Source of the DNA: an uncultured Clostridia bacterium
GTDB taxonomy: Bacteria > Bacillota > Clostridia > Oscillospirales > Oscillospiraceae
Assembly (NCBI GenBank): GCA_946629065.1
Contig: CAMOXK010000006.1
Span: 1 to 52,925, forward strand
DNA: 52,925 nt
Reading direction: 5' to 3'
In this document: positions 36,426 through 52,925 of the stretch, in pieces
How the letters are laid out: every line of letters starts with the position of its first letter
Position numbering within the stretch: position 1 is the stretch's first letter
The notes under the pieces: model-generated
The model's input: the letters and a program-made list of their open reading frames with translations, nothing else
Databases searched by the model: none
Told to the model about the DNA's origin: nothing
Made by a program: the position numbers and the translations under genes

Positions 36426-37730
36426 TCAGCCCGGCTTTTTCAGGAAGAAGTTTGCGTGGAAGAGGCCTTCCTCCGCGAAGATCACAAGCTCCCCGCCGTA
36501 GCGGGCGACTGAGGCGCGGACGCTCTTGGTGCCGAAGCCGTGGTTTTCCGCGTCGGGCTTTGTGGTTTTGGGCAGGCCGTTTTCCAGAATGGGCGCGCTG
36601 TCGCAGGTGTTGAGGACGTGGAAAAACAAGCAGTCGCCGGTATCGGTCATCTTGATGGAGACGATGCGGCGCTTGCTCTCCGGGATCGCCGCCACGGCGG
36701 TGAAGGCGTTGTCCAGCAGGTTTCCGAAGATCGCGTAGAGATCGATGGGCTGCACGAAGGAGAGGGCTTTGCCGTCCAGCAGATAGGTAAAGCGGACCTT
36801 TTCCTGCTCGCTTCGCAGCACCGCGTCGGAGAGAACGGTGTCCAGCGCTTCGTTCCCCGTCTCCACAAGCCGGTCGTAACGTTCCAGCTCCGAGCGGATC
36901 TGGGCCGTCATACCCGGGTCGGGACTTCGGCCGCTGCCCTCCCAGCGATCCAGCAGCTTTTTCAGATCGTGGGCGCGGATGTTCACCCGCTCGATGATCT
37001 CCCGCTTGAATTCGTACTGCTCCTTCTGCTTTTGCGCGGCCTCCCGCACCCGGTCCGCCTCCCGCACGACAAGGCGGGTGTGCTGGATGCTGAGGAGGAG
37101 CAGATACATGATGACGCAGGTCAGCAGCATGTGGATGCGGTAGGCGAGCAGGACTGCCGGGTCATCCGTCAGCTGCATGATCGCCAGGTTCAGCACCGAG
37201 AGAGGCAGCGGCAGCAGAAGCCCGGCCGCCAGCACCTCCGTAAAGCCCCGCAGGGGAATGAGCCTGCGGTAGCAGCGCTTCAGGGTCACAAACATCAGCA
37301 GATAGGCCGCCGCGTAAAGCGCGAATACCCCGAGGGTCACGGCGGGAGACTCCGCCGGGAACGGCCTGCCCGCGAGCCGGGCTGTGAGAAAGACGATCTC
37401 CGTCAGAGTGTAGAGCGTGTGCTGCCAGACCTGGCCGATGACGCAGATATAGGCCACCTCGTAGATCGAGCCCTCAAAGCAGAGGAGAAGCCCGGCGCCG
37501 ATGGCAAGATACAGAAGATAATAATACAGCGTTTCCGGAACCGCCGCGTGGGGCGATCCCTCCGGGATCAGCAGGATCAGCAGCGACAGCAGAAAAAAGC
37601 CGCCGGCAGACCCGCAGACCCGCAGCGCCAGCCTGTCCCGTTTCAGGGGGAGCAGGCAGCAGGACAAAATGCCGAAGAGCAGCGCGTAGACCGGGCTGCA
37701 GCGGGAAACGGCGTGAAGCAGAGCGTTCAT
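36426..37730 (-). CDS. GHKL-type sensor histidine kinase (AgrC-like)
   Basis: The product (434 residues) has six to seven transmembrane helices in the first 220 residues, a coiled linker, the phosphorylated His254 in RAHDLKKLLDRW, and a GHKL ATPase domain (FGNLLDNAFTAV, then HGFGTKSVRASVARYGGEL). This is the AgrC/class 10 kinase type, usually a peptide or small-molecule sensor. It overlaps the response regulator gene by 4 bp. There is no AgrB or AgrD-like gene nearby, so the signal is not the usual cyclic peptide made next door. The position next to glycosidase genes suggests a glycan-related or quorum signal. Confidence 0.9.
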   Translation of the reverse strand: MNALLHAVSRCSPVYALLFGILSCCLLPLKRDRLALRVCGSAGGFFLLSLLILLIPEGSPHAAVPETLYYYLLYLAIGAGLLLCFEGSIYEVAYICVIGQVWQHTLYTLTEIVFLTARLAGRPFPAESPAVTLGVFALYAAAYLLMFVTLKRCYRRLIPLRGFTEVLAAGLLLPLPLSVLNLAIMQLTDDPAVLLAYRIHMLLTCVIMYLLLLSIQHTRLVVREADRVREAAQKQKEQYEFKREIIERVNIRAHDLKKLLDRWEGSGRSPDPGMTAQIRSELERYDRLVETGNEALDTVLSDAVLRSEQEKVRFTYLLDGKALSFVQPIDLYAIFGNLLDNAFTAVAAIPESKRRIVSIKMTDTGDCLFFHVLNTCDSAPILENGLPKTTKPDAENHGFGTKSVRASVARYGGELVIFAEEGLFHANFFLKKPG

Positions 37731-38434
37731 GAGATCCCCCCGTGATACCGCAGCAGGGCGTCCACAAACTCCTTGCGGCGCCGCCGGCTGATGGGGACCC
37801 AGTCCGCCCCCAGCAGCAGGGTGTTGCCGTCAACGCCGGTGACATGGCGGGGGTTTATGAGGCAGAAGCGGGAGCACTGCAGAAAGCCCAGGGGCTCCAG
37901 CTGCTCGGCGGCAGCGCCGATGGTGTCGGTGGTGCGAAACTGCCCCTCCGTCGTGTGGTAGACCAGGTGATGCCCGAAAACCTCCACATAGCGGATGGCG
38001 TCCGAGGAGAGCCAGCGGTGGTCTCCGCCCTGGGAGATGCGGATGCGGAAGGGCCGGCGGGCGTCGATCTGGCGCAGGGCCCTGCCCAGCTTTACGGCAA
38101 ATTCCTCATAGGCCACGGGCTTGAGCAGATAGTCCAGCGCGTCCACGGAGTAGCCCTCCAACGCGTATTGGGCGATGCGGGAAATGAAAAGGATCACCAG
38201 GTCGCTGCCCCGTTCCCGGAGCGTGCGGGCAATGTCGATGCCGTTTGACCAGCGCATCTCCACATCGAGAAAGAGCAGATCAAAGCAGTCCGGCTTCTGC
38301 AGCAGCAGATCCTCCCCGTCCGGAAAGGACGAAACGGAATACTCCCTGGGCTCCGCGGCAAAGTATTGTTCCAGATACGTTTGGATCCGGGAAAGATCCT
38401 CCTCGTCGTCATCCACGACTGCGATCCGCAGCAT
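37727..38434 (-). CDS. LytTR-family response regulator
   Basis: The product (235 residues) has a receiver domain (residues 1-120, acidic pocket DDDEED, phospho-acceptor Asp57 in LLFLDVEM) and a C-terminal LytTR DNA-binding domain (about 135-235, IRYVEVFGHHLVYHT ... FLQCSRFCLINPRHV). LytTR proteins bind paired 9-bp direct repeats about two helical turns apart. Exactly such a pair lies in the divergent gap at 38523-38554 and another at 46437-46468. The ATG at 38434 follows AGAGGTGG and gives the standard receiver N terminus. It is the first gene of the unit and is divergent from the GH3 gene. Confidence 0.92.
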   Translation of the reverse strand: MLRIAVVDDDEEDLSRIQTYLEQYFAAEPREYSVSSFPDGEDLLLQKPDCFDLLFLDVEMRWSNGIDIARTLRERGSDLVILFISRIAQYALEGYSVDALDYLLKPVAYEEFAVKLGRALRQIDARRPFRIRISQGGDHRWLSSDAIRYVEVFGHHLVYHTTEGQFRTTDTIGAAAEQLEPLGFLQCSRFCLINPRHVTGVDGNTLLLGADWVPISRRRRKEFVDALLRYHGGIS

Positions 38435-38522
38435 ACGAAAACCACCTCTTTTCAAGCATTTACTATATCACAGAGCAGGGGGGCTTTTCAAGTTCAACAA
38501 AGATCGCCTGCGGATTTATTCG

Positions 38523-38554
38523 CCATTTGTGCGTTTTGAATGACCGTTTGCGCG
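38523..38554 (+). promoter_or_regulatory. Candidate LytTR-binding direct repeats upstream of the GH3 gene
   Basis: CCATTTGTGCG (38523-38533) and CCGTTTGCGCG (38544-38554) are direct repeats with 21-bp offset, the usual geometry of LytTR/VirR/AgrA sites. The second repeat ends 6 bp before the -35 of the GH3 promoter, a typical activator position. An almost identical pair lies at 46437-46468. Confidence 0.65.
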
Positions 38555-38560
38555 CCGATC

Positions 38561-38588
38561 TTCCAGACAGGAAAAAAGATGGTATTAT
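38561..38588 (+). promoter_or_regulatory. GH3 promoter
   Basis: TTCCAG (38561-38566) is a poor -35 and TATTAT (38583-38588) a good -10, 16 bp apart. A weak -35 next to activator repeats is what an activator-dependent promoter looks like. Confidence 0.55.
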
Positions 38589-38641
38589 GGTCGTAACCGT
38601 AATACGGACGGTAGATTCCAGAATTGAAAGGAAGGATTTGA

Positions 38642-41600
38642 ATGGCAAAGAGAGGACTCTGGCGCGGCCTTGCAACACTGATGGCATCGCTGCTGGTGTT
38701 CACCATGGCCGCGCAGGCAACCTCCAACGCTTGGGCCAACAAGGTCAACAGTATGCTCGGCACAAGCAACTATGAGGTTGTTGTCACAGACGACGCGGAG
38801 GACAATAACGGGACCTATTTTGCTTCCGATTATGCCTCCCTCAAGGACATGGTCGCCGCGCAGAAGGAATTTGCGGCTTCCGTGGCGGCGGAGGGCGTCG
38901 TCCTGCTGAAGAACGAGCAGAACGCGCTGCCGCTGAACAAGGGCAGCGAGAGCGTGACCCTCTGGGGCATGCACACCGATAACCCGGTCCTGGGCGGCAT
39001 GATGGGCTCCACCGCCTTCGTCAACTTCGAGGCCGGCCAGGTGCTCTACGGCATCAAGGAGGCCATGGCCGAGAAGGGCTTCACCCTGAACCAGAACTTC
39101 ATCGACCTGTACGCCAGCGCCGACATGGACCCCTACCGCATGGTCGCCATGTTCTTCGGCATGCCCATCCCGGGCCACATTCTGACCCCGGTGTTCACCA
39201 CCATGGCGGAGAACTTCTCCACCTACAAGGTGGGCGAGGCCCCTGCCAGCGTCTACACCGATGAGCTGCTGGCCTCCGCTGACGACACCGCCGCTCTGGT
39301 GCTCATCACCCGCGACAACTCCGAGGCTGCGGACTACTATCCCACCATGGTCCACGCCGACGATACCGACAGCTTTGAGCGTCCCCTGGCCCTGTCCCAG
39401 AACGAGCGGGACATGATCGCTCTGGCCAAGGAGCACTCCACCAAGGTCGTTGTCCTCATCAACAGCTCCTCCGCCATGGAGATCGAAGAGCTGAAGAACG
39501 ACCCTGAGGTCGACGCGGTCCTGTGGGTCGGCGACCCGGGCGTCAACGGCTACCTGGGCATTTCCGACGTGCTCTCCGGCGAGATCGCTCCCTCCGGACG
39601 GCTCATCGACACCTACTCCAGCAGCAGCGTTTCTTCCCCCGCCATGGTGAACTTCGGCGTGTATCTCTACACCGCCAACTCCTTCGCCGACAGCAGCATC
39701 TCCTATGACGACTGCGGCGACGCCTATCTGGTGGAGTCCGAGGGTATCTACCAGGGCTACAAGTACTACGAGACCCGCTATGAGGACGCCATCCTGGGCC
39801 AGGGCAACGCCGAGGCTACGGAAGGCTCCAGCACCGGCAGCGCCTGGAACTACGCCGATGAGATGTCCTATCCCTTCGGCTACGGCCTGAGCTACACCAC
39901 CTTCGAGCAGAAGCTGGAGTCCGTGGAAGCCACCGTCGGCGGCGAGGGCACGGCTGTCGTCACCGTCACCAACACCGGCACCGTCAAGGGCAAGGACGTT
40001 GTGGAGCTCTATGTGCAGGCTCCCTACACCGCAGGCGGCCTGGAGAAGGCCTCCCTGCAGCTCATCGGCTTCGGCAAGACCGGCGTTCTGGAGCCCGGCG
40101 CTTCCGAGTCCGTCACCATCACCTTCGACCCCCGCTACATGGCCAGCTATGACGAGACCGTCGTCAAGGCCGACGGCACCGAGGGCGCCTGGGTCCTGGA
40201 CGAGGGCACTTACTACTTCGCCATCGGCAGCAGCGCCCACAACGCCATCAACAACATCCTGGCCCACAAGCTGGGCAGCACCGACGCTCTTGTGACCGTC
40301 AACGACAACGAAGTCATCGACCCCGAAAATGTAAAAGAATGGAAATTGTCCGGCCGTGACGTGGAGACCTATTCCGAGAATGTCCAGAATGCTCTCCAGA
40401 ACATGGACCTGAATAAGATCATTTCTGGTTCCGTTGAGTACATTACCCGTGCCGACTGGACCCGTGGCTGGAAGCCTGTCATGGACGTCACCCCCACCGA
40501 CGACATGAAGATCGACCTTACGAACAATCGCAACGAGCTCACCGAGAACGGCAGCGGCGTCACCTGGGGCAACCAGAGCGGCCTGAAGCTGGTGAACCTG
40601 ATCGAGACCGATGAGGAAGGCCGCTATGTGGGCGTTGTGGATTACGACGATCCTCTGTGGCAGCAGCTGGTGGAGACCGTCACCCTGGACGAGGCCATCA
40701 ACTACATCGAAAACGCCGGCAACGGCATCAGCGCCATCGATTCCGTCGGCGTACAGGCCCACGGCATCCAGGACGGCCCCACGGGCTTTGCCAATGACCA
40801 GGTCGCGGCCTACTTCATCAAGTGGGTCGGCGGCAACACCAAGGAAGCCACCTACGTTGCCGAGAACGACGAGTGCGCCGCCTACACCATGAACGTGTTC
40901 CCCACCGAGCCCGTCGTGGCTTCTTCCTTCAACCAGGCGCTGGTGTTTGAAGAGGGCAAGATGTACGGCGAGGAGAGCCTCTGGTCCAACATCCCCGGCA
41001 CCCTGGCTCCCGGCATGAACCTGCATCGCGTTCCCTACTGCGCCCGGAACCATGAGTACTATTCCGAGGATCCCATGGTCACCAACCTCATGGGCACCGC
41101 CTTCTGTGCCGGCGGCAGCGCCAAGGGCCTGATGACCGAGCCCAAGCACCTGGCCTTCAACCACCAGGAGACCAACCGCTCCGGCGCCTCCACCTTCATG
41201 ACCGAGCAGGCCGCCCGCGAGAACGATCTGCGCGCCTTCATGGGCCCCCTGTCCTCCAACGAGGCCATGGGCGTCATGACCGCCTATAACCGTGTCGGCA
41301 CCGTCTACGCCAGCGCCCACAGCGGCCTGCTGGAGCAGATCGTCCGCAACGAGTGGGGCTTCAAGGGCTGGATCGTCACCGATATGGCCGCCGCCCCGGA
41401 TTACATGAACTGGCTGGGCTCCGTGAAGAACGGCACCTCCGGCATGCTGACCACCAACGCCACCACCTCCGCCAGCAAGTTCGGCTCCATGGAGTCCAAC
41501 AAGGCGAAGATCCTGAAGGATACCGAGTTCCAGGAGAAGATGCAGCTTGCCGTGAAGTCCTATCTGTACTCCATCGCCCGCAGCAATGCCATGAACGGCA

Positions 41601-41743
41601 TCACGGAGAACACCAAGACCAACTATGTGCTGACCTGGTGGCAGAAGGCCATCATCGGCGCTGAGGCCGCCACCGCAGCCCTGACTGTGGTGTTCCTGGC
41701 TGTTGATGTTTTCAAGAAGCGGAAGAACCAGACAGGGAGGTAA
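38642..41743 (+). CDS. Membrane-anchored, domain-permuted GH3 glycosidase
   Basis: The product (1033 residues) is a glycoside hydrolase family 3 enzyme with its domains in the reverse of the usual order. The GH3 C-terminal sandwich domain comes first (about residues 65-420, EGVVLLKNEQNALPL and GEIAPSGRLIDTYS), then a fibronectin-III-like domain (about 435-545). The TIM-barrel N domain comes last (about 650-960), with Lys835-His836 (EPKHLAFNHQETNR) and the nucleophile Asp914 in GWIVTDMAA. Hydrophobic anchors lie at both ends (about 8-28 and 1003-1022), so it should be tethered outside the membrane. Such reversed GH3 enzymes are known in rumen and gut Firmicutes. Substrate is a beta-linked oligosaccharide, precise linkage unknown. 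Codon use is strongly biased, suggesting high expression. AAGGAAGG precedes the ATG. Confidence 0.9.
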   Translation: MAKRGLWRGLATLMASLLVFTMAAQATSNAWANKVNSMLGTSNYEVVVTDDAEDNNGTYFASDYASLKDMVAAQKEFAASVAAEGVVLLKNEQNALPLNKGSESVTLWGMHTDNPVLGGMMGSTAFVNFEAGQVLYGIKEAMAEKGFTLNQNFIDLYASADMDPYRMVAMFFGMPIPGHILTPVFTTMAENFSTYKVGEAPASVYTDELLASADDTAALVLITRDNSEAADYYPTMVHADDTDSFERPLALSQNERDMIALAKEHSTKVVVLINSSSAMEIEELKNDPEVDAVLWVGDPGVNGYLGISDVLSGEIAPSGRLIDTYSSSSVSSPAMVNFGVYLYTANSFADSSISYDDCGDAYLVESEGIYQGYKYYETRYEDAILGQGNAEATEGSSTGSAWNYADEMSYPFGYGLSYTTFEQKLESVEATVGGEGTAVVTVTNTGTVKGKDVVELYVQAPYTAGGLEKASLQLIGFGKTGVLEPGASESVTITFDPRYMASYDETVVKADGTEGAWVLDEGTYYFAIGSSAHNAINNILAHKLGSTDALVTVNDNEVIDPENVKEWKLSGRDVETYSENVQNALQNMDLNKIISGSVEYITRADWTRGWKPVMDVTPTDDMKIDLTNNRNELTENGSGVTWGNQSGLKLVNLIETDEEGRYVGVVDYDDPLWQQLVETVTLDEAINYIENAGNGISAIDSVGVQAHGIQDGPTGFANDQVAAYFIKWVGGNTKEATYVAENDECAAYTMNVFPTEPVVASSFNQALVFEEGKMYGEESLWSNIPGTLAPGMNLHRVPYCARNHEYYSEDPMVTNLMGTAFCAGGSAKGLMTEPKHLAFNHQETNRSGASTFMTEQAARENDLRAFMGPLSSNEAMGVMTAYNRVGTVYASAHSGLLEQIVRNEWGFKGWIVTDMAAAPDYMNWLGSVKNGTSGMLTTNATTSASKFGSMESNKAKILKDTEFQEKMQLAVKSYLYSIARSNAMNGITENTKTNYVLTWWQKAIIGAEAATAALTVVFLAVDVFKKRKNQTGR

Positions 41744-41748
41744 GCAAA

Positions 41749-42141
41749 ATGAAAAAATCTCCGGCATACTATCTGACACTCGTCGCAACCGTGCTTGCGG
41801 TGCTGGCGCTCATCTTCTACCAGAGCAACAGCATCAAGAGAGGCTATGTGACCGTGCTCGCCATCTGCGCCATCGTGTTCGGCCTGCTGTATCTTGCCCT
41901 CTATGGCAAGCTGGGCGACAAGCACTGGTTTGGCTATGTGCTCACCCTGGCGGCTGTTGCGTCCATCGGCGCGGTGGGCTACAGCCTGGTCAATGAGGTG
42001 GAGGCCATCGGCTATCTGATGTCCGGCCTTCGCCAGTGGTCCGACATTCAGATGTGGGCCTACTTTGCCATCTGCGGCATCCTGGCCTGGCTGCTGCTGC
42101 TTGTGGCTTCCTTCATGAAGTCCGGCGAGCGCAAGGCGTAA
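41749..42141 (+). CDS. Small four-helix membrane protein following GH3
   Basis: The product (130 residues) has four predicted transmembrane helices (about residues 8-24, 36-53, 65-82, 101-120) and short loops, with no recognised domain. It begins 5 bp after the GH3 stop codon and is followed by a terminator, so the two are co-transcribed. The obvious guess is an anchor, chaperone or stability partner of the membrane-tethered GH3 enzyme, but no sequence motif proves this. Confidence 0.78.
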   Translation: MKKSPAYYLTLVATVLAVLALIFYQSNSIKRGYVTVLAICAIVFGLLYLALYGKLGDKHWFGYVLTLAAVASIGAVGYSLVNEVEAIGYLMSGLRQWSDIQMWAYFAICGILAWLLLLVASFMKSGERKA

Positions 42142-42148
42142 TCAACAA

Positions 42149-42178
42149 AGGGACTGTGAAAATCATTTCACAGTCCCT
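42149..42178 (+). terminator. Terminator of the GH3 operon
   Basis: AGGGACTGTGAAA pairs with TTTCACAGTCCCT across a 4-nt loop, followed by GTTTCT. The tail is only partly T-rich, so some readthrough into the esterase gene is possible. Confidence 0.7.
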
Positions 42179-42196
42179 GTTTCTATGGGAGCAAAC

Positions 42197-43240
42197 ATGA
42201 AAAGAAAGAAGAGCATCCTTTTGGTGCTGGTTGGCCTTCTTGTGATCCTGCTGATGCTTTGCGGGATCTATCACCGGTCCATCGCGCTGAGCCTGGACAA
42301 TCTGACTGTGGAACACTACGCGGATCCGGCTGTCGATCCCTGGGACGGCGGGAAAGCGTATCTCAATATCCCCTACGCCGACCTCTCGGAGAGCGAGTAT
42401 CTGAATCTCTATCTGCCCGACGGCGTTGAAAACCCGCCTCTCTATGTGCTCATTCACGGCGGCGGCTTCATTGCCGGCACGGCGGAAACAAGGCAGACCC
42501 AGCTGATGTACCGCTATTTTCGGGATCACGGCTATGCGGTGGCCACGGTGAACTATCGTCTTGCCCAGGAAGCGCCGTTCCCCGCCGCCATTGAGGACTG
42601 CAAAGCCGCGATCCGCTTCCTTCGGGCAAATGCGGAGGAATATGGCTACAACGCGGAGCGCATCGCCCTGTTCGGCGAATCCGCCGGCGGCTATCTTGCC
42701 ACCATGTGCGCCTTCACAAACGACGGAGTTTTTCATGATCTGCCCTTCATCGGGCAGACCGACGAAAACGATCCCAGCGCCAGGGTGGATGTGCTGGTGG
42801 ATTACTATCCCTTCGTCTCCCTGACGGGCCTGGACGCGGATCTGAAGGAGATCGGCTGCGCGAAGCTGTTTTTCAAGCTGGCCAATTCCTGGGCAAACGG
42901 CAAGCTGGACGGCTATGAGGATTTTGCCTCCTGCTGGCTGCGGAAAAACATCTCCGAGATGACGGCGGAGGAGCGGCAGATCGCGGACCCCTTCTGGTAT
43001 CTGGAAAAGAACGGGGCGGAGCTTCAGGACCTTGCGGTCTGGCTGATCCACGGTGACGCCGACATCACGGTGCCGATCCCCTCTTCGAACCGGCTCTATG
43101 CGAGCATGGAGAAGATCCTGGATCCCCAGCGGCTCGTTTACCGGGTGGTCCCGCACATGGGACACGCCAGCGATCCGCTGTACGCGGATACCGTCCTTCG
43201 GGAGATCGAAGCCTGGATGGCGGCGCAGCGCGATCGGTAA
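42197..43240 (+). CDS. Membrane-anchored alpha/beta hydrolase (carbohydrate-esterase-like)
   Basis: The product (347 residues) has one N-terminal membrane anchor (about residues 6-26). It is an alpha/beta hydrolase of the HSL/BD-FAE type: oxyanion loop LIHGGGFIAGT, nucleophile Ser162 in LFGESAGGYLATM, acid in LIHGDADITVP and histidine in VVPHMGHASDP. Such enzymes next to glycosidases usually remove acetyl or feruloyl groups from plant polysaccharides. The ATG at 42197 has GGGAG 5 nt upstream. It follows the GH3-operon terminator by 18 bp, so it may be fed by readthrough; no separate promoter was read. It ends in a bidirectional terminator. Confidence 0.85.
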   Translation: MKRKKSILLVLVGLLVILLMLCGIYHRSIALSLDNLTVEHYADPAVDPWDGGKAYLNIPYADLSESEYLNLYLPDGVENPPLYVLIHGGGFIAGTAETRQTQLMYRYFRDHGYAVATVNYRLAQEAPFPAAIEDCKAAIRFLRANAEEYGYNAERIALFGESAGGYLATMCAFTNDGVFHDLPFIGQTDENDPSARVDVLVDYYPFVSLTGLDADLKEIGCAKLFFKLANSWANGKLDGYEDFASCWLRKNISEMTAEERQIADPFWYLEKNGAELQDLAVWLIHGDADITVPIPSSNRLYASMEKILDPQRLVYRVVPHMGHASDPLYADTVLREIEAWMAAQRDR

Positions 43241-43264
43241 CGGAGTCTGCCCCCGTGCGGGCAA

Positions 43265-43297
43265 AAAACAGCAGTGGGAGTTTCCCACTGCTGTTTT
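43265..43297. terminator. Bidirectional terminator between esterase and GH43 genes
   Basis: AAAACAGCAGTGGGA pairs perfectly with its complement around a 3-nt loop, with A-run and T-run flanks for both convergent units. Confidence 0.88.
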
Positions 43298-43313
43298 GCG
43301 TTTTGAATCCCGA

Positions 43314-44777
43314 TCAGGCCAGGTCGAAGGAGAGAAAGTCGAAGGTACCGCCCTTGCCTTCCACGGAGAAATAGAGGGCTTCCTTTTCGCCCAGACCCTG
43401 GGGAAGGGCACCGGTGAAGCTCTTCTCGGTGGTGCAGGTCTCCACGGGGATGCGGAGGATGGGCTCGCCATGCTCCTGGGTGCGGACGGTGACGGCGCAG
43501 CCGTTGCCGTAGCCCTGCAGGGTCACGGTGAGGGTTTTGGTCTCGCGGAGATCGAAGTATTTGAAGCCCACGGTGCAGTCGGTGCAGAAGTTGGAGACAT
43601 ACTGGTCGGGACCCTCTTCCCGGTCGCCGCCCTTCTGGGTGAGGAAGGGATTGGAACCTTTTTTGTACTTGATCATGGACATGAAGCAGGTTCCGTTTTT
43701 GCCGTAGACATTACAGGCGGTATAGGCGGGATAATGGCCCTTGCCGGAGAGAGGACCGTTGTTGAGGCCGCAGGAGGTCATTTCGGCCTGGTAAAATTTA
43801 CCATTTTCGAAACGGATCTCCTCGGCGCAGGCCTGGCGGGAGGACTGCTTGCGGTTGGAGTGGCGGTGATAGAAGATGTAATAGTGACCCTCGATCTCGA
43901 TGAGGGAGCCGTGGGTGTTGCCGGTGCACATGCGGGCATGCTTCACATCCGGCACGCCGGGCAGGCCGATATCGCCGCAGGAGACCAGGATGCCGCCGAA
44001 TTCAAAGCCGTGGTCGGGATAGTCGGAGACGGCATAGCAGAGGTTGTGGCTGTTGAGGGAGCTGTAGATGAAGTAGTATTTGCCATTGAATTTGCGCATG
44101 GAGCTGGCCTCGCCGAAGGGCTGGGGCTCATAGGGCGTGCCCTTGGCCTCCTCGCCGGTGAGGACGCCGATGTAATGGAGCTCATCGGATTTGACGGTCA
44201 GCATGTCCGTGGTGTCGATCTCGAAGACCATGGGGCCCTTTTTGGTGGGCTGGGAGCCGTCCAGCAGGATGGGGTTGCCGCCGAAGGCAAAGCCGGTGTA
44301 GAGATAGAGGCGGCCGTCGTCATCCTTCAGGCAGCCCGGGTCGAACTGGAAGGGCTCGTTGCGCTTGCCGATGGGGGTGCCGTCGGGGTATTTCACATAG
44401 CCGTAGAACTCATACTTGCCGGCGGGCTCATCGCAGACGGCCACGGAGATCATCTTGGTGCCGCCCATGAAGTAGTAGAGATAGTAGCGCCCGTCATCGC
44501 CCACCACCATGTCGGGGGCGGCCAGACCGTTGGTGACCCGGATCCTGGGGGCGGCGGGGTCCTGCTCCCGCTTGAAGATGCAGCCGTGATAGGTCCAGTT
44601 GCCCAGATCGTCCACCGGAGCGGACCAGCAGACATAGTCGCCCAGGCAGAAGTTGATGCCGTTGAAGGTGTCATGGGAACCGTAGATGTAGACCCGGCCG
44701 TTTACGATATGGGGCTCGGCGTCCGGGACATATTCCCAGCTGGGCAGATAGGGGTTGAAGGCCTGCTTTGTTTTCAT
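43314..44777 (-). CDS. GH43-family glycosidase
   Basis: The product (487 residues) has the five-bladed propeller of glycoside hydrolase family 43 (xylosidases, arabinofuranosidases, and related). The catalytic base is Asp19 in YVPDAEPHIV, the pKa modulator lies in QFDPGCLKD, and the acid is the Glu of FGEASSMRKFNGKYYF. A C-terminal beta-sandwich of about 130 residues follows (FKYFDLRETKTLTVTL), probably carbohydrate-binding. There is no signal peptide, so it works in the cytosol on imported oligosaccharides. It lies 31 bp downstream of the GH78-like gene on the same strand, the second gene of that operon. Confidence 0.9.
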   Translation of the reverse strand: MKTKQAFNPYLPSWEYVPDAEPHIVNGRVYIYGSHDTFNGINFCLGDYVCWSAPVDDLGNWTYHGCIFKREQDPAAPRIRVTNGLAAPDMVVGDDGRYYLYYFMGGTKMISVAVCDEPAGKYEFYGYVKYPDGTPIGKRNEPFQFDPGCLKDDDGRLYLYTGFAFGGNPILLDGSQPTKKGPMVFEIDTTDMLTVKSDELHYIGVLTGEEAKGTPYEPQPFGEASSMRKFNGKYYFIYSSLNSHNLCYAVSDYPDHGFEFGGILVSCGDIGLPGVPDVKHARMCTGNTHGSLIEIEGHYYIFYHRHSNRKQSSRQACAEEIRFENGKFYQAEMTSCGLNNGPLSGKGHYPAYTACNVYGKNGTCFMSMIKYKKGSNPFLTQKGGDREEGPDQYVSNFCTDCTVGFKYFDLRETKTLTVTLQGYGNGCAVTVRTQEHGEPILRIPVETCTTEKSFTGALPQGLGEKEALYFSVEGKGGTFDFLSFDLA

Positions 44778-44808
44778 GCGCGTGATCCTCCTTGTCCGGT
44801 TTTTCCGT

Positions 44809-46365
44809 TTATTTCAATAAATACTTTTCGATGATATAGGCGGGGGTGCAGCTCCAGGCGTGGCAGTAGCTGTTGACCACGCTGCCGCCGTAGGGGGAGC
44901 GCTCCGGGTGCTCCGGATCCCAGCATTCCCAGAAGGTATCGGCACCGGCGTCCAGCATGCTGCCCCAGTAGTAGCGCAGATGCTCCTCAGCCTCTTTGCG
45001 CAGACCCACCCGCAGCAGGGCCATCACATAGTAGTGATGCATGTAGGGAGTGGACATGCGAGGGCCTTCCGCGAGGGAGAGGGTCTTTGCCATGGCGCGA
45101 AGGGCCTGCTCGGGGGAGCAGACATCGGCCAGCACCATCCAGACCTGGGAGGCAGCGGAGATCTGCCCGTTTGAGACAAAGCAGCCCTGCTCCTCACTCC
45201 AGAAGCGCTCCATGGCGGCCTTGCGCAGGGCGTCATGCTGCTGGAGAAGATAATTGGCCTGGGACCAGTCGTTCCGGCGGCGGGCAAGGCGGCGGGCATA
45301 GCGCAGGGCGTAGAGCAGCACGGCGCTGGCACAGGCGCTTTTATCCAGTTCATCGCACCAGTCGATGAAGGCGTCCTTCACGGCCTCGGCGCCAACGACA
45401 CCGGTGCTGTCCAGCTGGCGGAGGGCATACTCCACCTGCTGCATGGCGATGTCATAGAGATCGTCCAGGGCCTCGGGTTCGCCGGTGTCCTGGAGATACT
45501 CCTCCAGGGTGACGGTGTAAAGCAGGGCATAGTCGAAGAGGAAGGTGTCGTCCCCCTCCACGGTGGGCTTGGTGAACACATTGGCGCTGACACGCCCGTC
45601 GGGGAAGCGGCTGCCGCCGAAGAGATAGAGGCAGCGCTTGACCAGATCGAAGTTCCGGAAGGAGATGGCGTTGGTGAGGGCCATGAGCCGCAGATCGCCC
45701 ACCCAAAGGCGCCTGTCCCGCTTGGGCCCGTCCTCAAACTCCTCCTGCATGCAGTTGGCCAGGGTCTTGAGGCTCACGGCGTGGATCCGGTCCAGCTGCT
45801 CGTCCCCGCTCTGCAGGGGGCGGAGACCGGTCCAGTCGGCAGAGCTCTCGGTGCGGCACTCGGCATGGCGGACGATGAGCTTGTACTTGGGGGAGGTGTC
45901 CATCATGGTGATCTTGAGATAGCGGAAAGCGTAGCGCCGGGGCAGCACCAGGGTGCTGGGCAGCAGGTCCACATGGATATACTCCTCCTGGATCCAGCTG
46001 CGGGAAAGCCAGCCGTCATAGTCCTGGGAGTTCTCACTGAGCTCCTGGAAAGTCTCGGCAAATTTCAGCTTGAGAAAGGCCGGCGCGTCCGGATGGCTGC
46101 CGGTATAGCTGAGCTCCAGGGTCAGATAGCCCACCAGATGCTCGCCGAAATCCAGGCAGAGGTTTTCCCCCTTGCCCATGCTGAGATGGGGAAGCTGGCG
46201 GAGAACGATCTCCTGCTTTTCGGGGCTGTAGCGCTCCTTGAGCTGGAAGCCGCCGATGGGCTCCAGGATGCTGTGGCGCAGAGGTGGCGTGAGCTGCTCG
46301 GCCCGGGAGAGCAGCTTTTCGTTTGCCAGAGGATGGAAGTCTTCTATAATAGAAATGAGTGCCAT
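44809..46365 (-). CDS. GH78-like (alpha-L-rhamnosidase-type) glycosidase
   Basis: The product (518 residues) resembles the catalytic part of family 78 enzymes: a short N-terminal beta domain (about 1-180), then an (alpha/alpha)6 barrel with the signature EEFEDGPKRDRRLWVGDLR that carries the general acid, and later WCDELDKSACASAVLLYALR and TFWECWDPEHPERSPYGGS. It is shorter than classic rhamnosidases (about 900 residues) and lacks the accessory sandwiches, so another alpha-linked substrate is possible. There is no signal peptide. AAGGAG precedes the ATG. It is the first gene of a GH78-GH43 operon and is divergent from GH2, with LytTR-like repeats between. Confidence 0.82.
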   Translation of the reverse strand: MALISIIEDFHPLANEKLLSRAEQLTPPLRHSILEPIGGFQLKERYSPEKQEIVLRQLPHLSMGKGENLCLDFGEHLVGYLTLELSYTGSHPDAPAFLKLKFAETFQELSENSQDYDGWLSRSWIQEEYIHVDLLPSTLVLPRRYAFRYLKITMMDTSPKYKLIVRHAECRTESSADWTGLRPLQSGDEQLDRIHAVSLKTLANCMQEEFEDGPKRDRRLWVGDLRLMALTNAISFRNFDLVKRCLYLFGGSRFPDGRVSANVFTKPTVEGDDTFLFDYALLYTVTLEEYLQDTGEPEALDDLYDIAMQQVEYALRQLDSTGVVGAEAVKDAFIDWCDELDKSACASAVLLYALRYARRLARRRNDWSQANYLLQQHDALRKAAMERFWSEEQGCFVSNGQISAASQVWMVLADVCSPEQALRAMAKTLSLAEGPRMSTPYMHHYYVMALLRVGLRKEAEEHLRYYWGSMLDAGADTFWECWDPEHPERSPYGGSVVNSYCHAWSCTPAYIIEKYLLK

Positions 46366-46396
46366 AACAAACTCCTTACATTTTTACAAATACAAT

Positions 46397-46402
46397 ATTA
46401 TA
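46397..46402 (-). promoter_or_regulatory. -10 box of the GH78-GH43 operon
   Basis: A perfect TATAAT on the minus strand, 32 bp before the ATG. No good -35 is visible at 16-18 bp, again suggesting activator dependence. The direct repeats at 46437-46468 lie 35 bp upstream of it. Confidence 0.55.
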
Positions 46403-46436
46403 CGAAACGGAAAAAGAAAACAATTCACAGCAGAAA

Positions 46437-46468
46437 CTGTTTGCGTCATTTTTTGCGCCGTTTGCGGC
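46437..46468. promoter_or_regulatory. Candidate LytTR-binding direct repeats between GH78 and GH2 genes
   Basis: CTGTTTGCGTC (46437-46447) and CCGTTTGCGGC (46458-46468) are 21 bp apart, the same motif and spacing as at 38523-38554. Shared positions across the four half-sites are C-Y-R-TTTG-Y-G. They lie in the 280-bp divergent gap and could serve either direction. Confidence 0.62.
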
Positions 46469-46645
46469 AGGCCCCTTTTCTTGCAAAGCAATCCATGGTA
46501 AGAAAAAATAGAGAAAGACTATACAGAGCGTGTACTGCCCGCGCGGAGACCGCTTTTCCGGGCTGGCCTGGCCTGCCGCCTTCCGAGGCGAGGGCGGATG
46601 CGGATAAATGAGATTTGAAAAAATAAAATACAGGGAGGAAAAAGC

Positions 46646-49027
46646 ATGCAGTTTCAGCACTTTAACGACGGTTGGTTTTGCAGGCATCTGGAGGAGACGG
46701 GACCGGGACTCGCGGTTTCGATCCCCGACGACGCCATGCTGCGGGAGCCCCGCAGCGCCACCTCCATGGGCGGACTGAACGTGAGCTGGTTTGAGGGCAG
46801 GGATTATGCCTACACCAAGAGCTTTCCCCTTACCCCCGAGCAGCTGAAGGGCAGCCTGGTCCTGGAGTTTGAGGGCGTATACCGCAAGGCGGAGGTCTGG
46901 CTCAACGGCCAAAAGGCCGCCTTCCGCCCCTATGGCTATACCAATTTCTATGTGGATCTGAAGGGTTTTGTCCGCGAGGGCGAGAATACCGTGGAGGTGC
47001 GGGCCTTCAACGCCGACCAGCCCAACTCCCGCTGGTACTCCGGCGCGGGCATCTACCGGCCGGTGAAGCTCTGGACGGGTCCGGCGGAGCGCGTGGAGCT
47101 GAACGGCATCCGGGTGAAGACCCTGTCCCTGGAGCCGCCCACCGTGGAGATCCAGGTGAAGACCAGCGGTGAAGGGCCGGTGAAGCTGGAGCTTCTGGAC
47201 GGAGAGAAGGTCCTGGCCGCCGCAGAAGGGGAGGAGCGGGTCTTTACCCTTTCTGCGCCCGGGGCGGAGAGCTGGAGCGTGGAGCATCCCAGGCTCTACA
47301 CCTGCCGGGTGCGCTATGGCGAGGATACGGCGGAGACAAGCTTCGGCTTCCGCACCCTGTCCTGGGGAAGGGAGGGCCTCTGCATCAACGGAAAGCGGGA
47401 GATCCTCCGGGGCGCCTGCGTCCACCACGACAACGGCCTGCTGGGCGCAAAATGCGACCCCGACGCCCTGGAGCGCCGCATCCGCCTCCTGAAGGAAAAC
47501 GGCTACAACGCCCTGCGCTCGGCCCACAACCCCTGTTCCAAGACCGCGCTGGAGATCTGCGATCGGCTGGGCATGCTGGTGATGGACGAGTACATCGACC
47601 ACTGGTACATCCACAAGACCATGTACGACTATGTGGACTTCTTCTTCGACTGGTGGAAGCAGGACATGGCCGACATGGTGGACAAGGACTTTAACCACCC
47701 CTGTGTGATCCTCTACTCCACCGGCAACGAGGTGGCCGAGACGGCCCAGCCCAAGGGCATCCAGTTGGCCAAGGACATGACCGCCCTGCTCCACGAGCTG
47801 GACGGCACCCGGCCCGTCACTTGCGGCGTGAACATTTTCTTCAACTTCCTCAACCACATCGGCTTCGGCCAGTACTCCGACGAGAAGGCCGCCAAGGAGG
47901 CCGAGAAGGCCGCCAAGGCCAAGGCCGCCGGCAAGAAGGCCAAGGAAAGCAGCACCGGCTCCAAGTTCTTCAACGACATGGCGGGCCTCATGGGCGCGGA
48001 CTTCATGAAGCTGGGCGCCACGCTCCACATGAGCGACGTGACCACCCGGGAGTCCTTTGCCAATATGGACGTTGCCGGTTACAACTACGGCGAGAAGCGC
48101 TACAAGAAGGACCTGAAAAACTACCCCGACCGTCTGATCCTGGGCTCGGAGACCTTCTGCTTCGACGCCTACAAGTTCTGGGAGCTGGCAAGGGACAACC
48201 CGCGGCTCATCGGCGATTTCGTCTGGGCGGGCACCGACTACCTGGGCGAGGTGATGATCGGAAGCTGGGAGTACGGCGACTACGCCAAGAACTTCGACGC
48301 GAGCCTTGGCTGGATGAGCGCCGGCAGCGGCCGCATCGACCTGACCGGCAAGCCCCTGGGCGAGGCGCTCTACACCAAGGTGGCCTTCGAGCTGGAGAAG
48401 GGGCCCTTTATCGCGGTGCGCCCCATCTGCCACGAGGGCAAGCACAGCCCCTCCGCCTGGAAAATGACCAACGCCATGCCCTCCTGGAGCTGGCGGGGCT
48501 TTGAAGGAAAGAAGGCCACCGTGGAGGTCTATGCCAGGGCGGAGAGCGTGGAGCTGCTCCTCAACGGCCGGTCCCTGGGCAAAAAGGCCCCAAAGAAGGA
48601 TTGCCGGGTGATGTTCAAGGTGCCCTATGAAAACGGCGTGCTGGAGGCCGTGAGCTATGACGCGGCGGGCAGCGTGATCGGCCGGGACCGGCTGGAGACC
48701 GCCGGAGAAAAGACCGAGCTGCGCCTGGAGGCGGAGGAGAAGCGGGTGCAGCCCGGGCGCCTGGCCTTCCTGCGGCTGCGCTACACCGACGAAAAGGGGA
48801 CTGCCAAGCCCTGCGAGCGGGGCATGGTGAAGGCCACCGTGGAGGGCGGCACCCTGGAGGCCTTCGGCTCCGCCTGCCCCTTCTATGAGCAGAGCTATCT
48901 GGACGCCGAGAGCGACACCTACTACGGCGAGGCCCTGCTGATCGTCCGTGCCGGGGAGAGCGGGACCCTGCGCGCTTCCGTCAGCGACGGAAGGTACAGC
49001 GCCCAAGCGGAGCTGCCCATCGGCTGA
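46646..49027 (+). CDS. GH2-family glycosidase (beta-galactosidase-like)
   Basis: The product (793 residues) has the GH2 layout: sugar-binding sandwich (about 1-160), immunoglobulin-like domain (165-250), TIM barrel (255-560), then DUF4982- and Big-type sandwiches. The acid/base is Glu362 in YSTGNEVAE and the nucleophile Glu502 in ILGSETFCFD. An unusual Lys/Ala-rich insert lies at about residues 412-436 within the barrel (AAKEAEKAAKAKAAGKKAK); similar inserts are known to me from related gut enzymes. There is no signal peptide, so it is cytosolic. GGAGG precedes the ATG. Beta-galactosidase is the default; beta-glucuronidase or other GH2 activities cannot be excluded. Confidence 0.88.
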   Translation: MQFQHFNDGWFCRHLEETGPGLAVSIPDDAMLREPRSATSMGGLNVSWFEGRDYAYTKSFPLTPEQLKGSLVLEFEGVYRKAEVWLNGQKAAFRPYGYTNFYVDLKGFVREGENTVEVRAFNADQPNSRWYSGAGIYRPVKLWTGPAERVELNGIRVKTLSLEPPTVEIQVKTSGEGPVKLELLDGEKVLAAAEGEERVFTLSAPGAESWSVEHPRLYTCRVRYGEDTAETSFGFRTLSWGREGLCINGKREILRGACVHHDNGLLGAKCDPDALERRIRLLKENGYNALRSAHNPCSKTALEICDRLGMLVMDEYIDHWYIHKTMYDYVDFFFDWWKQDMADMVDKDFNHPCVILYSTGNEVAETAQPKGIQLAKDMTALLHELDGTRPVTCGVNIFFNFLNHIGFGQYSDEKAAKEAEKAAKAKAAGKKAKESSTGSKFFNDMAGLMGADFMKLGATLHMSDVTTRESFANMDVAGYNYGEKRYKKDLKNYPDRLILGSETFCFDAYKFWELARDNPRLIGDFVWAGTDYLGEVMIGSWEYGDYAKNFDASLGWMSAGSGRIDLTGKPLGEALYTKVAFELEKGPFIAVRPICHEGKHSPSAWKMTNAMPSWSWRGFEGKKATVEVYARAESVELLLNGRSLGKKAPKKDCRVMFKVPYENGVLEAVSYDAAGSVIGRDRLETAGEKTELRLEAEEKRVQPGRLAFLRLRYTDEKGTAKPCERGMVKATVEGGTLEAFGSACPFYEQSYLDAESDTYYGEALLIVRAGESGTLRASVSDGRYSAQAELPIG

Positions 49028-49587: not shown

Positions 49588-49622
49588 GATCCTTCGGCTC
49601 CGCTGCGCTTCGCTCAGGATGA
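49588..49622. repeat. CTGTCATCCTGAGCGAAGCG-type repeat overlapping a stop codon
   Basis: Read on the minus strand: CTGTCATCCTGAGCGAAGCG followed by CAGCGGAGCCGAAGGATC. Same family as 35182-35222. It supplies the last codons and the TGA of the membrane-protein gene. Confidence 0.6.
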
Positions 49623-50285
49623 CAGGGTCGAGACCGCGGAACGTCTGCGGCGGGCGAGGAAGAGCAGGGCATGGGCCGCGGCATAGAACAGCAGGAGCAG
49701 GGCCAGCACGGCGTAAAAGACGCCGATCTGGATCGGGAAAAAGCGGCTGCCTCCCACCACAAGGCCGAACCAGCCGGCAGGGGAGCCGTAGTCCAGGAAA
49801 GGATAGGGGGCCAGCATGCCGGTGGGACCCCAGCGCAGGCCCAGCCTGCCAAGAGCGAGAATGAACAGAAAGTACAGAAAAGGCGGGATGAGGGCCAGGG
49901 CGGCGTGCCGCTTTCCGTAGGGGAAGGCGGCGTCGTTCCGGAAAAAGTCAAACATGGCCAGAGCGGGGTTCAGCAGATGCAGGCAGAAGCTGGCGCCGTG
50001 GTCCTGGGCGTAGGCCGCGGTCAGGCCGCCGGGGACCACAGGTCCCAGCACCGTGAGATAGACCAGAAAGGTGACAAAGATGGACAGCACCGCGCTGAAC
50101 TTGAGGCCTGGAAGAAAGCGGGCCTTGGGGAAGAGAAGCTGCAGCAGCACCACGGCGGCAAGAAAGAGATTGGAAAGCTGGGTAAAGAAGGTAAAGCCGA
50201 TGGGCCAGTGCAGCAGGTTCACCACGGCATAGGCGGTGGTGGCGAGGATCAGAAGCTTGGGAACAGGAAACTTGGGATGTTTCAT
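49614..50285 (-). CDS. Pr6Pr-like integral membrane protein
   Basis: The product (223 residues) has six predicted transmembrane helices. The segments FTFFTQLSNLFLAAVVLLQL, YLTVLGPVVPGG and SFCLHLLNPALAMFDFF fit the Pr6Pr/FAR-17a-like membrane family, with conserved histidines between helices. Its biochemical role is not known; eukaryotic relatives hydrolyse fatty-acid esters. GGTGAT precedes the ATG. The C-terminal codons TLSS and the stop come from a dispersed repeat, so the original end may have been different. Confidence 0.75.
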   Translation of the reverse strand: MKHPKFPVPKLLILATTAYAVVNLLHWPIGFTFFTQLSNLFLAAVVLLQLLFPKARFLPGLKFSAVLSIFVTFLVYLTVLGPVVPGGLTAAYAQDHGASFCLHLLNPALAMFDFFRNDAAFPYGKRHAALALIPPFLYFLFILALGRLGLRWGPTGMLAPYPFLDYGSPAGWFGLVVGGSRFFPIQIGVFYAVLALLLLFYAAAHALLFLARRRRSAVSTLSS

Positions 50286-50822: not shown

Positions 50823-50843
50823 AGCTGACGGATGGGTGTGCTT

Positions 50844-51554
50844 ATGTACAGGATTGCTGTTGTGGACGATCAGCCGGAGGAGCGGAGCAGGCTGGAGGAT
50901 TACCTCCGCCGCTTTGCCGGCGAGCGAAAGCTCACGATCACGGTGGATCCCTTTGAGGGCGGCGAGAGTTTTCTTGCGGCCTTCGATCACAATTATGATA
51001 TCGTGCTGCTGGACATCGAAATGCAGGGCATCGACGGGATGGAGACTGCCAGGCGCCTGCGGGAAAAGGACGAGAAGGTCTGCCTGCTGTTTGTGACCTA
51101 TCTGGCCAATTTCGCGGTGCAGGGCTACAGCGTCCACGCACTGGATTTCCTGGTGAAGCCCGTGAGCTTTGAAAACTTCGGCATGAAGATGGAGCGTGCC
51201 CTCATCGCGGCGGACCGGGCCAGAAAAAAGGAGATCTTCCTCCCCACCGCGGAGGGCAACCGGCGCCTTCGCATCGACGAGCTCTACTACGTCGAGGTGA
51301 TGAACCATACCCTGCTCTACCACACGAAGGACGGGGTGCTCTCCGTGCGGGGCTCCATCCGCGAGTGCGAGGAGCGGCTGGCCCCCTATGATTTCGCCCG
51401 CTGCAACAAGAGCTTTCTTGTGAACATGAACGAGGTGACGGAGATCCGGCGCAGTGAGATCCGCGTGGGCGGGGATCTGCTGCCCATCGGCAGCTCCCGG
51501 CGGCAGGATTTCCTCCGGCAGCTGGCGGAGTTTATGGGGGAGATCGTGCTATGA
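50844..51554 (+). CDS. LytTR-family response regulator (second system)
   Basis: The product (236 residues) has a receiver domain (pocket VDDQPEER, phospho-acceptor Asp57 in VLLDIEMQ) and a LytTR DNA-binding domain (about 135-236, LYYVEVMNHTLLYHT, NKSFLVNMNEV). It is similar in plan to the regulator at 37727. The start is uncertain: the ATG at 50844 gives the standard receiver N terminus with GGATGGG upstream, while an ATG at 50832 lacks any ribosome site. The kinase gene overlaps by 4 bp. A long structured leader with a terminator precedes it, so expression may be attenuated. Confidence 0.9.
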   Translation: MYRIAVVDDQPEERSRLEDYLRRFAGERKLTITVDPFEGGESFLAAFDHNYDIVLLDIEMQGIDGMETARRLREKDEKVCLLFVTYLANFAVQGYSVHALDFLVKPVSFENFGMKMERALIAADRARKKEIFLPTAEGNRRLRIDELYYVEVMNHTLLYHTKDGVLSVRGSIRECEERLAPYDFARCNKSFLVNMNEVTEIRRSEIRVGGDLLPIGSSRRQDFLRQLAEFMGEIVL

Positions 51555-52864: not shown

Positions 52865-52869
52865 CAAAG

Positions 52870-52925
52870 TGGCTCTACGTCAATAGTTGGGGTAGAGTAA
52901 AAGAAGGAACCTAATACGAAGGAGC
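52870..52925. mobile_element. Possible left end of an ISL3-type insertion sequence (cut by window)
   Basis: Two bases or so after the kinase gene, GGCTCTACGTCAATAGTTGG begins. It resembles, from memory, the terminal repeats of ISL3-family elements. A purine-rich GAAGGA...GAAGGAG stretch follows at the edge, as before a transposase start. No transposase codons are in the window. Confidence 0.4.

What the first reader, a model, noticed from the sequence alone, without database searches (positions are those of the whole stretch)
38523..46468. One regulator motif in front of two separate glycosidase promoters
CCATTTGTGCG/CCGTTTGCGCG (38523-38554) upstream of GH3 and CTGTTTGCGTC/CCGTTTGCGGC (46437-46468) between the GH78 and GH2 genes share motif, orientation and an exact 21-bp spacing. 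LytTR regulators such as AgrA and VirR are known to bind direct repeats with this geometry. A LytTR regulator is encoded divergently from GH3, and the GH3 promoter has a weak -35 directly behind the repeats. LytTR systems normally control quorum, virulence or bacteriocin genes; control of a polysaccharide-degrading cluster would be new to me.
Basis: partly seen in the sequence, partly recalled or inferred. Interest (0 to 1): 0.82.

Follow-up and report, generated by a model that had tools for sequence, protein, structure and literature searches.

The report
LytTR operators controlling gut-bacterial glycosidase genes
Two pairs of short repeated DNA words, each exactly two helical turns apart, sit in front of sugar-cutting enzyme genes in an uncultured gut bacterium and are very likely landing sites for AgrA-like switch proteins; similar pairs, spelled differently for different switches, stand before many comparable genes in other gut bacteria, pointing to a widespread way of switching on fibre digestion.

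Summary
CCATTTGTG/CCGTTTGCG (38523) and CTGTTTGCG/CCGTTTGCG (46437) are each 9+12+9 bp on one strand, the only matches with up to 2 mismatches in the 2.37-Mb draft genome. They are conserved: both LytTR-A orthologues found have such a pair before GH3, and 7 of 12 GH78 orthologues have one beside GH78. In G032, with one LytTR of this subfamily, a pattern fitted to its sites matches perfectly at three places only, all glycosidase promoters; a one-mismatch pair before an esterase recurs in G090, the other LytTR-A genome. More widely, lag-21 repeats mark GH3 promoters beside this LytTR/GHKL subfamily (held-out: 20 of 79 at lag 21, 0-6 at other lags), though about half show no clear pair. I read them as LytTR operators, probably activating. 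Correction: a second LytTR/GHKL pair (LytTR-B, 50832) lies beside GH2, and the GH78/GH2 site occurs in B-only and A-only genomes, so "one regulator" is unproven. LytTR genes next to glycosidases were noted in print in 2010, 2016 and 2017; the papers I opened do not describe the operator. No binding or expression data.

The parts
38523..38554 (+). Operator 1: two 9-bp direct repeats CCATTTGTG and CCGTTTGCG, 12-bp spacer, upstream of GH3
   Evidence: equivalent pairs in L064 and L065
38561..38588 (+). Predicted GH3 promoter: weak -35 TTCCAG (38561-38566), 16-bp spacer, extended -10 TGG TATTAT (38580-38588)
   Evidence: read; similar operator-to--10 distance in relatives
38642..41743 (+). GH3-A, 1033 aa, GH3 domains in permuted order (C-terminal domain 86-418, N-terminal domain 751-917), one strong hydrophobic segment near the C terminus (1002-1025)
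37727..38455 (-). LytTR-A response regulator (receiver + LytTR domain), divergent from GH3-A
36426..37730 (-). GHKL sensor kinase A, about 6 hydrophobic segments, HATPase_c_5
41749..42141 (+). Small hydrophobic protein directly after GH3-A, no Pfam family
46437..46468 (+). Operator 2: CTGTTTGCG and CCGTTTGCG, 12-bp spacer, between GH78 and GH2, oriented towards GH2
   Evidence: equivalent pairs beside 7 of 12 GH78 orthologues
46476..46504 (+). Predicted GH2 promoter: weak -35 TTTTCT (46476-46481), 17-bp spacer, extended -10 TGG TAAGAA (46496-46504)
44809..46365 (-). GH78 (alpha-rhamnosidase-like), divergent from GH2
43314..44777 (-). GH43, downstream of GH78
46646..49027 (+). GH2 (best NCBIfam matches beta-galactosidase GalB and GalA, below their cut-offs)
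50832..51554 (+). LytTR-B response regulator, second candidate for operator 2
51551..52864 (+). GHKL sensor kinase B; the contig ends 61 bp later, where the four B-carrying relatives have another GH3 gene

Best explanation
Both repeat pairs are operators of LytTR response regulators. A GHKL sensor kinase in the membrane would detect an extracellular cue (probably a breakdown product of a plant polysaccharide) and phosphorylate its LytTR partner, which would bind the two half-sites, two helical turns apart on one DNA face, just upstream of a weak -35, and help RNA polymerase start GH3 (operator 1) and the GH2 unit (operator 2). LytTR-A is the likeliest reader of operator 1; operator 2 may be read by LytTR-B, LytTR-A or both. 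Shown here: the repeat pairs, their geometry, conservation, predicted promoter position and link to this LytTR/GHKL subfamily. Inferred: binding, phosphorylation, activation, the cue, and which regulator reads operator 2.
For: Exact pairs, unique in the draft genome. Both LytTR-A orthologues found among 148 relatives (60% and 57%) have CCGTTCGCG pairs at 21 bp before GH3. Four of four LytTR-B orthologues have a lag-21 pair before the GH3 that follows GHKL-B. GH78 orthologues: a pair with at most 2 mismatches to a degenerate half-site in 7 of 12, all 7 in the same orientation. G032 (94% complete): one LytTR at E <= 1e-40 in the LytTR-B search, the A orthologue; a pattern written from its sites has three perfect matches genome-wide, before GH43, GH78/rhamnosidase and GH3; a one-mismatch match before an esterase, not used for the pattern, recurs in G090, and that esterase was found in 2 of 101 genus genomes, G032 and G090. 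General test: dimer-motif likelihood peaks at lag 21 (156.6 against at most 111.9 at ten other lags); held-out score >= 10 in 20 of 79 at lag 21 against 0-6 at lags 14-20 and 22-30; best -10-like element 26-31 bp after the second 12-mer in 18 of 19 strong sites (shuffle expectation 5.9 for 24-34 bp, same tie rule). Glycosidase genes of four families within 5 kb: 31 of the 37 LytTR ranked closest, 0 of 23 more distant ones. Half-site similarity tracks DNA-binding-domain identity (r 0.46, 37 loci, permutation p 0.0002). Published LytTR sites are pairs of 9-bp direct repeats 10-13 bp apart, most upstream of -35 (PMC11347149 passages; PMC6193735 passages).
Against: No binding or expression data. 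Of 79 GH3 upstream regions 37 reach score 8 and 26 score 10, so about half show no clear pair. Lag 39 is a second, weaker peak that I cannot explain (11 of 32 and 15 of 57). 5 of 12 GH78 orthologues lack a pair, and G029 has one without an A or B orthologue. In B-carrying relatives the second half-site beside GH78 is weaker (CTTTTCACG, CATTTTACG). Operators are inherited with their neighbourhoods, so the correlation with LytTR similarity is not independent proof. In G032 two other one-mismatch matches (C23) look unrelated, the reversed control pattern also has two at that level, and a looser pair at C1:182793 had no obvious glycosidase after it. G032 and G090 may simply be close relatives.
Confidence: 0.85

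Rival explanations
1. Two regulators, not one (a version of the best explanation): LytTR-A reads operator 1 and LytTR-B, encoded beside GH2, reads operator 2; the likeness of the motifs reflects paralogy.
For: GH43-GH78, GH2, LytTR-B, GHKL-B and GH3 lie in this order in G019, with an extra gene before GH2; four B-carrying genomes without a detected A orthologue have the GH78 site; residues in the AgrA contact motif differ, FLQCSRF in A and FARCNKS in B (motif from a PMC4227749 passage).
Against: G032 has A, no B, and the GH78 site, on another contig than LytTR-A. Half-site letters do not separate A from B sites cleanly.
Confidence: 0.5
2. The sites are operators but used for repression, as for CoxC.
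For: A LytTR repressor with a site overlapping -35 is published (PMC11347149 passages).
Against: Here the 11-bp repeats end 6 and 7 bp before the predicted -35, and that -35 is weak, as expected at activated promoters.
Confidence: 0.1
3. The sites bind an unrelated regulator that happens to use 21-bp direct repeats.
For: No binding data.
Against: Motif and spacing fit published LytTR sites; the sites accompany this LytTR subfamily and vary with it.
Confidence: 0.05
4. Chance resemblance of two repeat pairs.
For: The pattern was written after the fact; 339 of 52,894 window positions have at least 8 of 11 identities at lag 21.
Against: Uniqueness in the draft genome and conservation in relatives.
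Confidence: 0.01

Closest known systems
AgrA, VirR, ComE-type LytTR response regulators with GHKL kinases
   Same: Receiver + LytTR domains, GHKL kinase, paired direct repeats just upstream of a weak -35 (PMC4227749, PMC2838878, PMC11347149 passages)
   Different: Neighbouring genes are glycosidases; AgrB was not detected in 11 genomes of the genus (control weak); several paralogues per genome with different half-sites
LytTR-GH3 neighbourhoods of Butyrivibrio proteoclasticus B316 (PMC2914790)
   Same: LytTR regulator close to a secreted GH3 with a C-terminal membrane helix (three cases); common function proposed (passages)
   Different: The two passages I read describe gene neighbourhood only; here repeat pairs, promoter geometry and a multi-site regulon are added. 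Three Pseudobutyrivibrio loci (L138, L141, L197) show candidate pairs
LytTR gene linked to cellulase genes in Cellulosilyticum ruminicola (PMC5733062)
   Same: LytTR gene next to polysaccharide-degrading genes, up on filter paper (1.5-fold) and xylan (11.5-fold) (passage)
   Different: Endoglucanase and cellobiohydrolase neighbours; no operator in the passage I read
LytTR Regulatory Systems (LRS, HdrRM/BrsRM; PMC6193735)
   Same: Direct repeats with 12-bp spacers, 4-11 bp upstream of -35 (passages)
   Different: LRS pair the regulator with a membrane protein (recalled, and as PMC11347149 puts it), not with a kinase
Hybrid two-component systems of Bacteroides PULs
   Same: PUL-encoded sensor and regulator
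   Different: One fused protein with an AraC-type output domain (recalled); here a separate GHKL kinase and LytTR regulator

Membership tests
LytTR two-component response regulators | Receiver domain plus LytTR DNA-binding domain | tested here: met
   Pfam PF00072 and PF04397 above cut-off for LytTR-A; LytTR-B has PF04397 above cut-off; D63 and K111 (numbering of the 241-aa fragment) invariant in 29 aligned sequences
LytTR two-component response regulators | Partner GHKL histidine kinase | tested here: met
   PF14501 above cut-off in the genes next to LytTR-A and LytTR-B
LytTR two-component response regulators | Operator of two 9-bp direct repeats 10-13 bp apart | tested here: met
   9+12+9 at both places; lag 21 preferred across 79 regions; rule from PMC11347149 passage
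LytTR two-component response regulators | Sites just upstream of a weak -35 | tested here: met
   promoters predicted, start sites not mapped
LytTR two-component response regulators | Binding and transcription activation | not testable with these tools
   needs gel shift and reporter assays
Agr-type quorum sensing | AgrB processing protein | tested here: inconclusive
   0 of 11 genus genomes match PF04647, but none of the 14 control genomes reached the cut-off either, and the genomes are incomplete
LytTR Regulatory Systems (LRS) | LytTR regulator with a membrane inhibitor instead of receiver and kinase | tested here: not met
   receiver domain and adjacent GHKL kinase present
Gram-positive polysaccharide utilization locus (gpPUL) | Clustered glycosidases with regulator and transporter | tested here: inconclusive
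   GH3, GH43, GH78, GH2, esterase and regulators present; transporter not looked for in the window; MFS_2 follows the GH78-divergent gene in G032

The most novel reading that the evidence does not exclude
A large LytTR/GHKL subfamily, spread over many Clostridia and present in a Bifidobacterium locus, is a dedicated fibre-sensing system: each copy controls its own membrane-anchored, permuted GH3 and partner glycosidases through a private pair of half-sites that has diverged with the regulator, so that several insulated copies work side by side in one cell, and some copies also run unlinked glycosidase genes in trans.
Probability: 0.55. Interest if true: 0.68.

Novelty: new variant of a known kind. 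Interest (0 to 1): 0.52.

Why it matters
In 2016 very little was known about fibre-degradation genes of gut Firmicutes compared with Bacteroidetes (PMC5320581, abstract start). A readable operator code tied to one regulator subfamily would let regulons be predicted from sequence in bacteria that have not been cultured, and would extend AgrA-like regulators from virulence and bacteriocins to diet. It also gives a natural set of paralogous regulator-operator pairs for studying how specificity diverges.

Tried and rejected
Rejected: chance; a single-genome curiosity; assignment of operator 2 to A or B by half-site letters, which did not separate. The shorter half-site pattern at 2 mismatches in eight genomes gave mostly background, control counts being of the same order. 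The u49 and u42 reading frames used as queries are on the wrong strand: the likely genes are 49614-50285 (-) and 42185-43240 (+). One search printed the wrong side for the minus-strand loci; redid those. No structure prediction, protein-database search or Rfam search was run: none would settle binding.

Limits. The 37 regions L064-L100 are all matches outside the window's own genome down to E 3.8e-33; L101-L123 are 23 of the 29 ranked next (6 not fetched). The border was drawn after looking. All 37 are from the window's genus, but only 9 of the 23 are, so part of the contrast may be taxonomic (within the genus: 0 of 9). Glycosidases were sought only with the four window enzymes as queries, and many loci are cut by contig ends; with both flanks of at least 5 kb the counts are 18 of 21, 0 of 17 and 40 of 48. 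Of the 57 GH3 regions at least two (L124 = L065, L168 = L089) repeat loci; one search removed near-duplicates (79 kept of 89). The PWM was trained on the same sequences; one search is the held-out version, where lag 20 (6) and lag 30 (4) are the next best. One search used 37 loci: outside -150 to -90, posterior under 0.6 or fewer than 6 identities were dropped, and two duplicates. The half-site consensus was written after seeing the sites. GH78 matches L215-L218 (42-51% identity) were left out of the 12.
Full report
Observation. Both repeat pairs are present letter for letter at the stated places. Each is 9 bp + 12 bp + 9 bp on the + strand. The pattern covering both has two exact matches in the window against 0.07 expected with up to 2 mismatches, and no further match with up to 2 mismatches in the 2.37-Mb draft genome, which is 67% complete; at 3 mismatches there is no excess over the reversed control pattern. 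Because the pattern was written from the finding, the fair test is conservation.

Surroundings. Left to right: GHKL kinase A and LytTR-A (minus strand), operator 1, GH3-A, a small hydrophobic protein, an esterase (BD-FAE), GH43 and GH78 (minus), operator 2, GH2, a membrane protein without a Pfam family (49614-50285, minus), LytTR-B and GHKL kinase B. GH3-A has its two GH3 domains in permuted order. The draft genome has three LytTR genes, two of them here. The contig ends 61 bp after GHKL-B. In the four relatives with LytTR-B orthologues a GH3 gene follows at this point, with its own lag-21 pair; a search of the draft genome with one of these GH3 proteins found nothing better than GH3-A (51%).

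Orthologues. A search of 149 genomes (the window's own, 90 of the same genus, 58 of the order) gave LytTR-A orthologues in two, G090 (60%) and G032 (57%); the next matches are at most 41% (list sorted and cut at about 6e-11). Both have CCGTTCGCG pairs at 21 bp between the divergent LytTR-A and GH3 genes. Of 12 GH78 orthologues in other genomes, 7 have a pair with at most 2 mismatches in the same orientation upstream of GH78: G019, G049, G046, G039, G032, G044 and G029 (shuffle fractions 0 to 0.027); 5 do not: G023, G020, G038, G083, G055. In the first four the second half-site is weaker (CTTTTCACG or CATTTTACG). Those four carry LytTR-B and no detected A orthologue; G032 carries A and no B; G044 has a partial LytTR 52% identical to B; G029 has neither, so it is an exception.

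G032 as a clean case. It is 94% complete and has one LytTR at E <= 1e-40 in the LytTR-B search, the A orthologue; one search lists no other G032 match down to about 6e-11. The pattern CCGTTYGNG-N12-YCGTTYGYG, written from its sites already seen, has three perfect matches genome-wide: before GH43, between GH78 and a divergent rhamnosidase followed by an MFS_2 transporter, and before GH3. That these fit is by construction; that nothing else does is the result. With one mismatch there are three more: one before an Abhydrolase_3 esterase with a hydrophobic N terminus and two near-identical copies on contig 23 that look unrelated; the reversed control pattern also has two matches at this level. The esterase site was not used to write the pattern. 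Its orthologue in G090, the other LytTR-A genome, has CCATTTGTG/CCGTTTGCG at 21 bp, the same half-sites as operator 1. That esterase was found in 2 of 101 genomes of the genus, G032 and G090, at E <= 1e-60. Common descent of these two species could explain part of this. The window's own esterase is a different protein, 29% identical over 97 residues.

General test. Of the LytTR hits I fetched 60. Of the 37 ranked closest to LytTR-A, 28 have GH3 and 31 have GH3, GH2, GH43 or GH78 within 5 kb; of 23 of the 29 ranked next, none has. All 37 but only 9 of the 23 are from the window's genus, so part of the contrast may be taxonomic. Of 80 named loci from a scan of one genome per species, 53 have GH3 and 58 any of the four. 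Upstream regions of GH3 genes favour direct repeats at lag 21: 21 of 32 regions with at least 8 of 10 identities in the first set and 22 of 57 in the second, against at most 11 and 15 at any other lag from 12 to 44 (both at lag 39, unexplained). A dimer motif fitted from random starts is most likely at lag 21 in 79 non-redundant regions (156.6 against at most 111.9 at ten other lags) and in the 53 from the second set (108.6 against at most 79.2), with consensus GCCGTTTGCG and GCAGTTTATG. In six-fold held-out scoring 20 of 79 regions reach score 10 at lag 21, against 0-6 at lags 14-20 and 22-30. Among 19 strong sites between -150 and -90 the best -10-like element lies 26-31 bp after the second repeat in 18 (shuffle expectation 5.9 for the 24-34 bp range; ties went to the offset nearest 27 in both). 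About half of the regions show no clear pair.

Specificity. Related LytTR proteins share half-sites and distant ones do not: mean half-site identity is 8.3 of 10 for DNA-binding domains above 70% identity (18 pairs), 7.0 for 50-70% (9 pairs) and 4.7-5.1 below 50% (37 loci, r 0.46, permutation p 0.0002). Of 8 within-genome pairs of paralogues 7 score 6.0 or less and one (G090) 7.0. Since promoters and regulators are inherited together, this supports but does not prove recognition.

Mechanism. The geometry matches published LytTR sites: pairs of 9-bp direct repeats 10-13 bp apart, most upstream of -35 and activating (PMC11347149, passages); 12-bp spacers and repeats 4-11 bp before -35 in S. mutans LRS (PMC6193735, passages); AgrA as a dimer on two direct repeats next to promoters with suboptimal spacing (PMC4227749, passages). 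Here the 11-bp repeats end 6 and 7 bp before a weak predicted -35. I therefore infer activation. The cue is unknown; AgrB was not detected in 11 genus genomes, but the control did not prove the search's power. The enzymes (GH3, GH43, GH78, GH2, esterase) suggest a pectin side chain or another branched plant glycan; that is inference.

Which regulator. Operator 1 lies in the LytTR-A/GH3-A intergenic region and is conserved there. Operator 2 belongs by gene order to the LytTR-B cluster (G019), yet G032 keeps it without B. I leave it open, with LytTR-B reading it (alone or with LytTR-A) about as likely as LytTR-A alone.

Prior art. PMC2914790 (2010; [quoted passage not shown] PMC5320581 (2016; passages) lists a LytTR regulator in Roseburia PUL Ros-7. 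PMC5733062 (2017; passage) reports a LytTR gene linked to endoglucanase and cellobiohydrolase genes, up 1.5-fold on filter paper and 11.5-fold on xylan. PMC10222030 (passage) only mentions LytTR abundance in rumen samples. In the open-licence PMC library I searched LytTR with: glycoside hydrolase and response regulator; polysaccharide utilization; direct repeat and 21 bp; GH3 and Butyrivibrio; AgrA, direct repeats and spacer; VirR, VirR box and ComE; CAZyme; xylan; glycosidase and regulon. No listed title, abstract start or opened passage describes LytTR operators at glycosidase genes; I opened passages of eight papers, and subscription journals are mostly not held.

Verdict. Real, conserved, and well explained as LytTR operators of a glycosidase regulon. 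New, as far as these searches go, are the operator, its promoter geometry and its divergence with the regulator; the regulator-GH3 neighbourhood itself was noted before.

Noticed in passing
window 38642-41743: GH3-A has its GH3 domains in permuted order and a hydrophobic segment near the C terminus; collinear near-full-length matches lie beside many LytTR of this subfamily.
   Followed up: partly
window 49614-50285 (-): Membrane protein without a Pfam family, divergent from LytTR-B, conserved at 70-81% identity beside LytTR-B in four of four relatives examined; a possible accessory sensor.
   Followed up: partly
window 52865-52925: The contig ends just after GHKL-B, where the four B-carrying relatives have a GH3 gene with its own repeat pair; no such gene was found in the draft genome.
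   Followed up: partly
L146 (Bifidobacterium moukalabense DSM 27321): A LytTR-GHKL-GH3 locus in an actinobacterium with a candidate pair CCGTTCGCG/CCGTTCCCG at 21 bp, about 240 bp before the estimated GH3 start; possible horizontal transfer.
   Followed up: no
L255 12825-12854 (G032): In G032 a repeat pair and a promoter-like sequence lie between GH78 and GH43, whereas in the window the two genes are 31 bp apart.
   Followed up: partly
window 42149-42178: A hairpin AGGGACTGTGAAA-N4-TTTCACAGTCCCT lies between the small protein after GH3-A and the esterase reading frame; if a terminator, GH3-A and the small protein form their own transcription unit.
   Followed up: no
G034 and G038 (L072, L078-L081, L084, L085, L087, L089, L090, L094, L097): Single genomes of the genus carry several LytTR copies of this subfamily (seven fetched from G034, five from G038), those with a clear site mostly having different half-sites.
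   Followed up: partly
GH3 upstream regions: Lag 39 is a second, weaker peak of direct repeats (11 of 32 and 15 of 57 regions); no explanation found.
   Followed up: no
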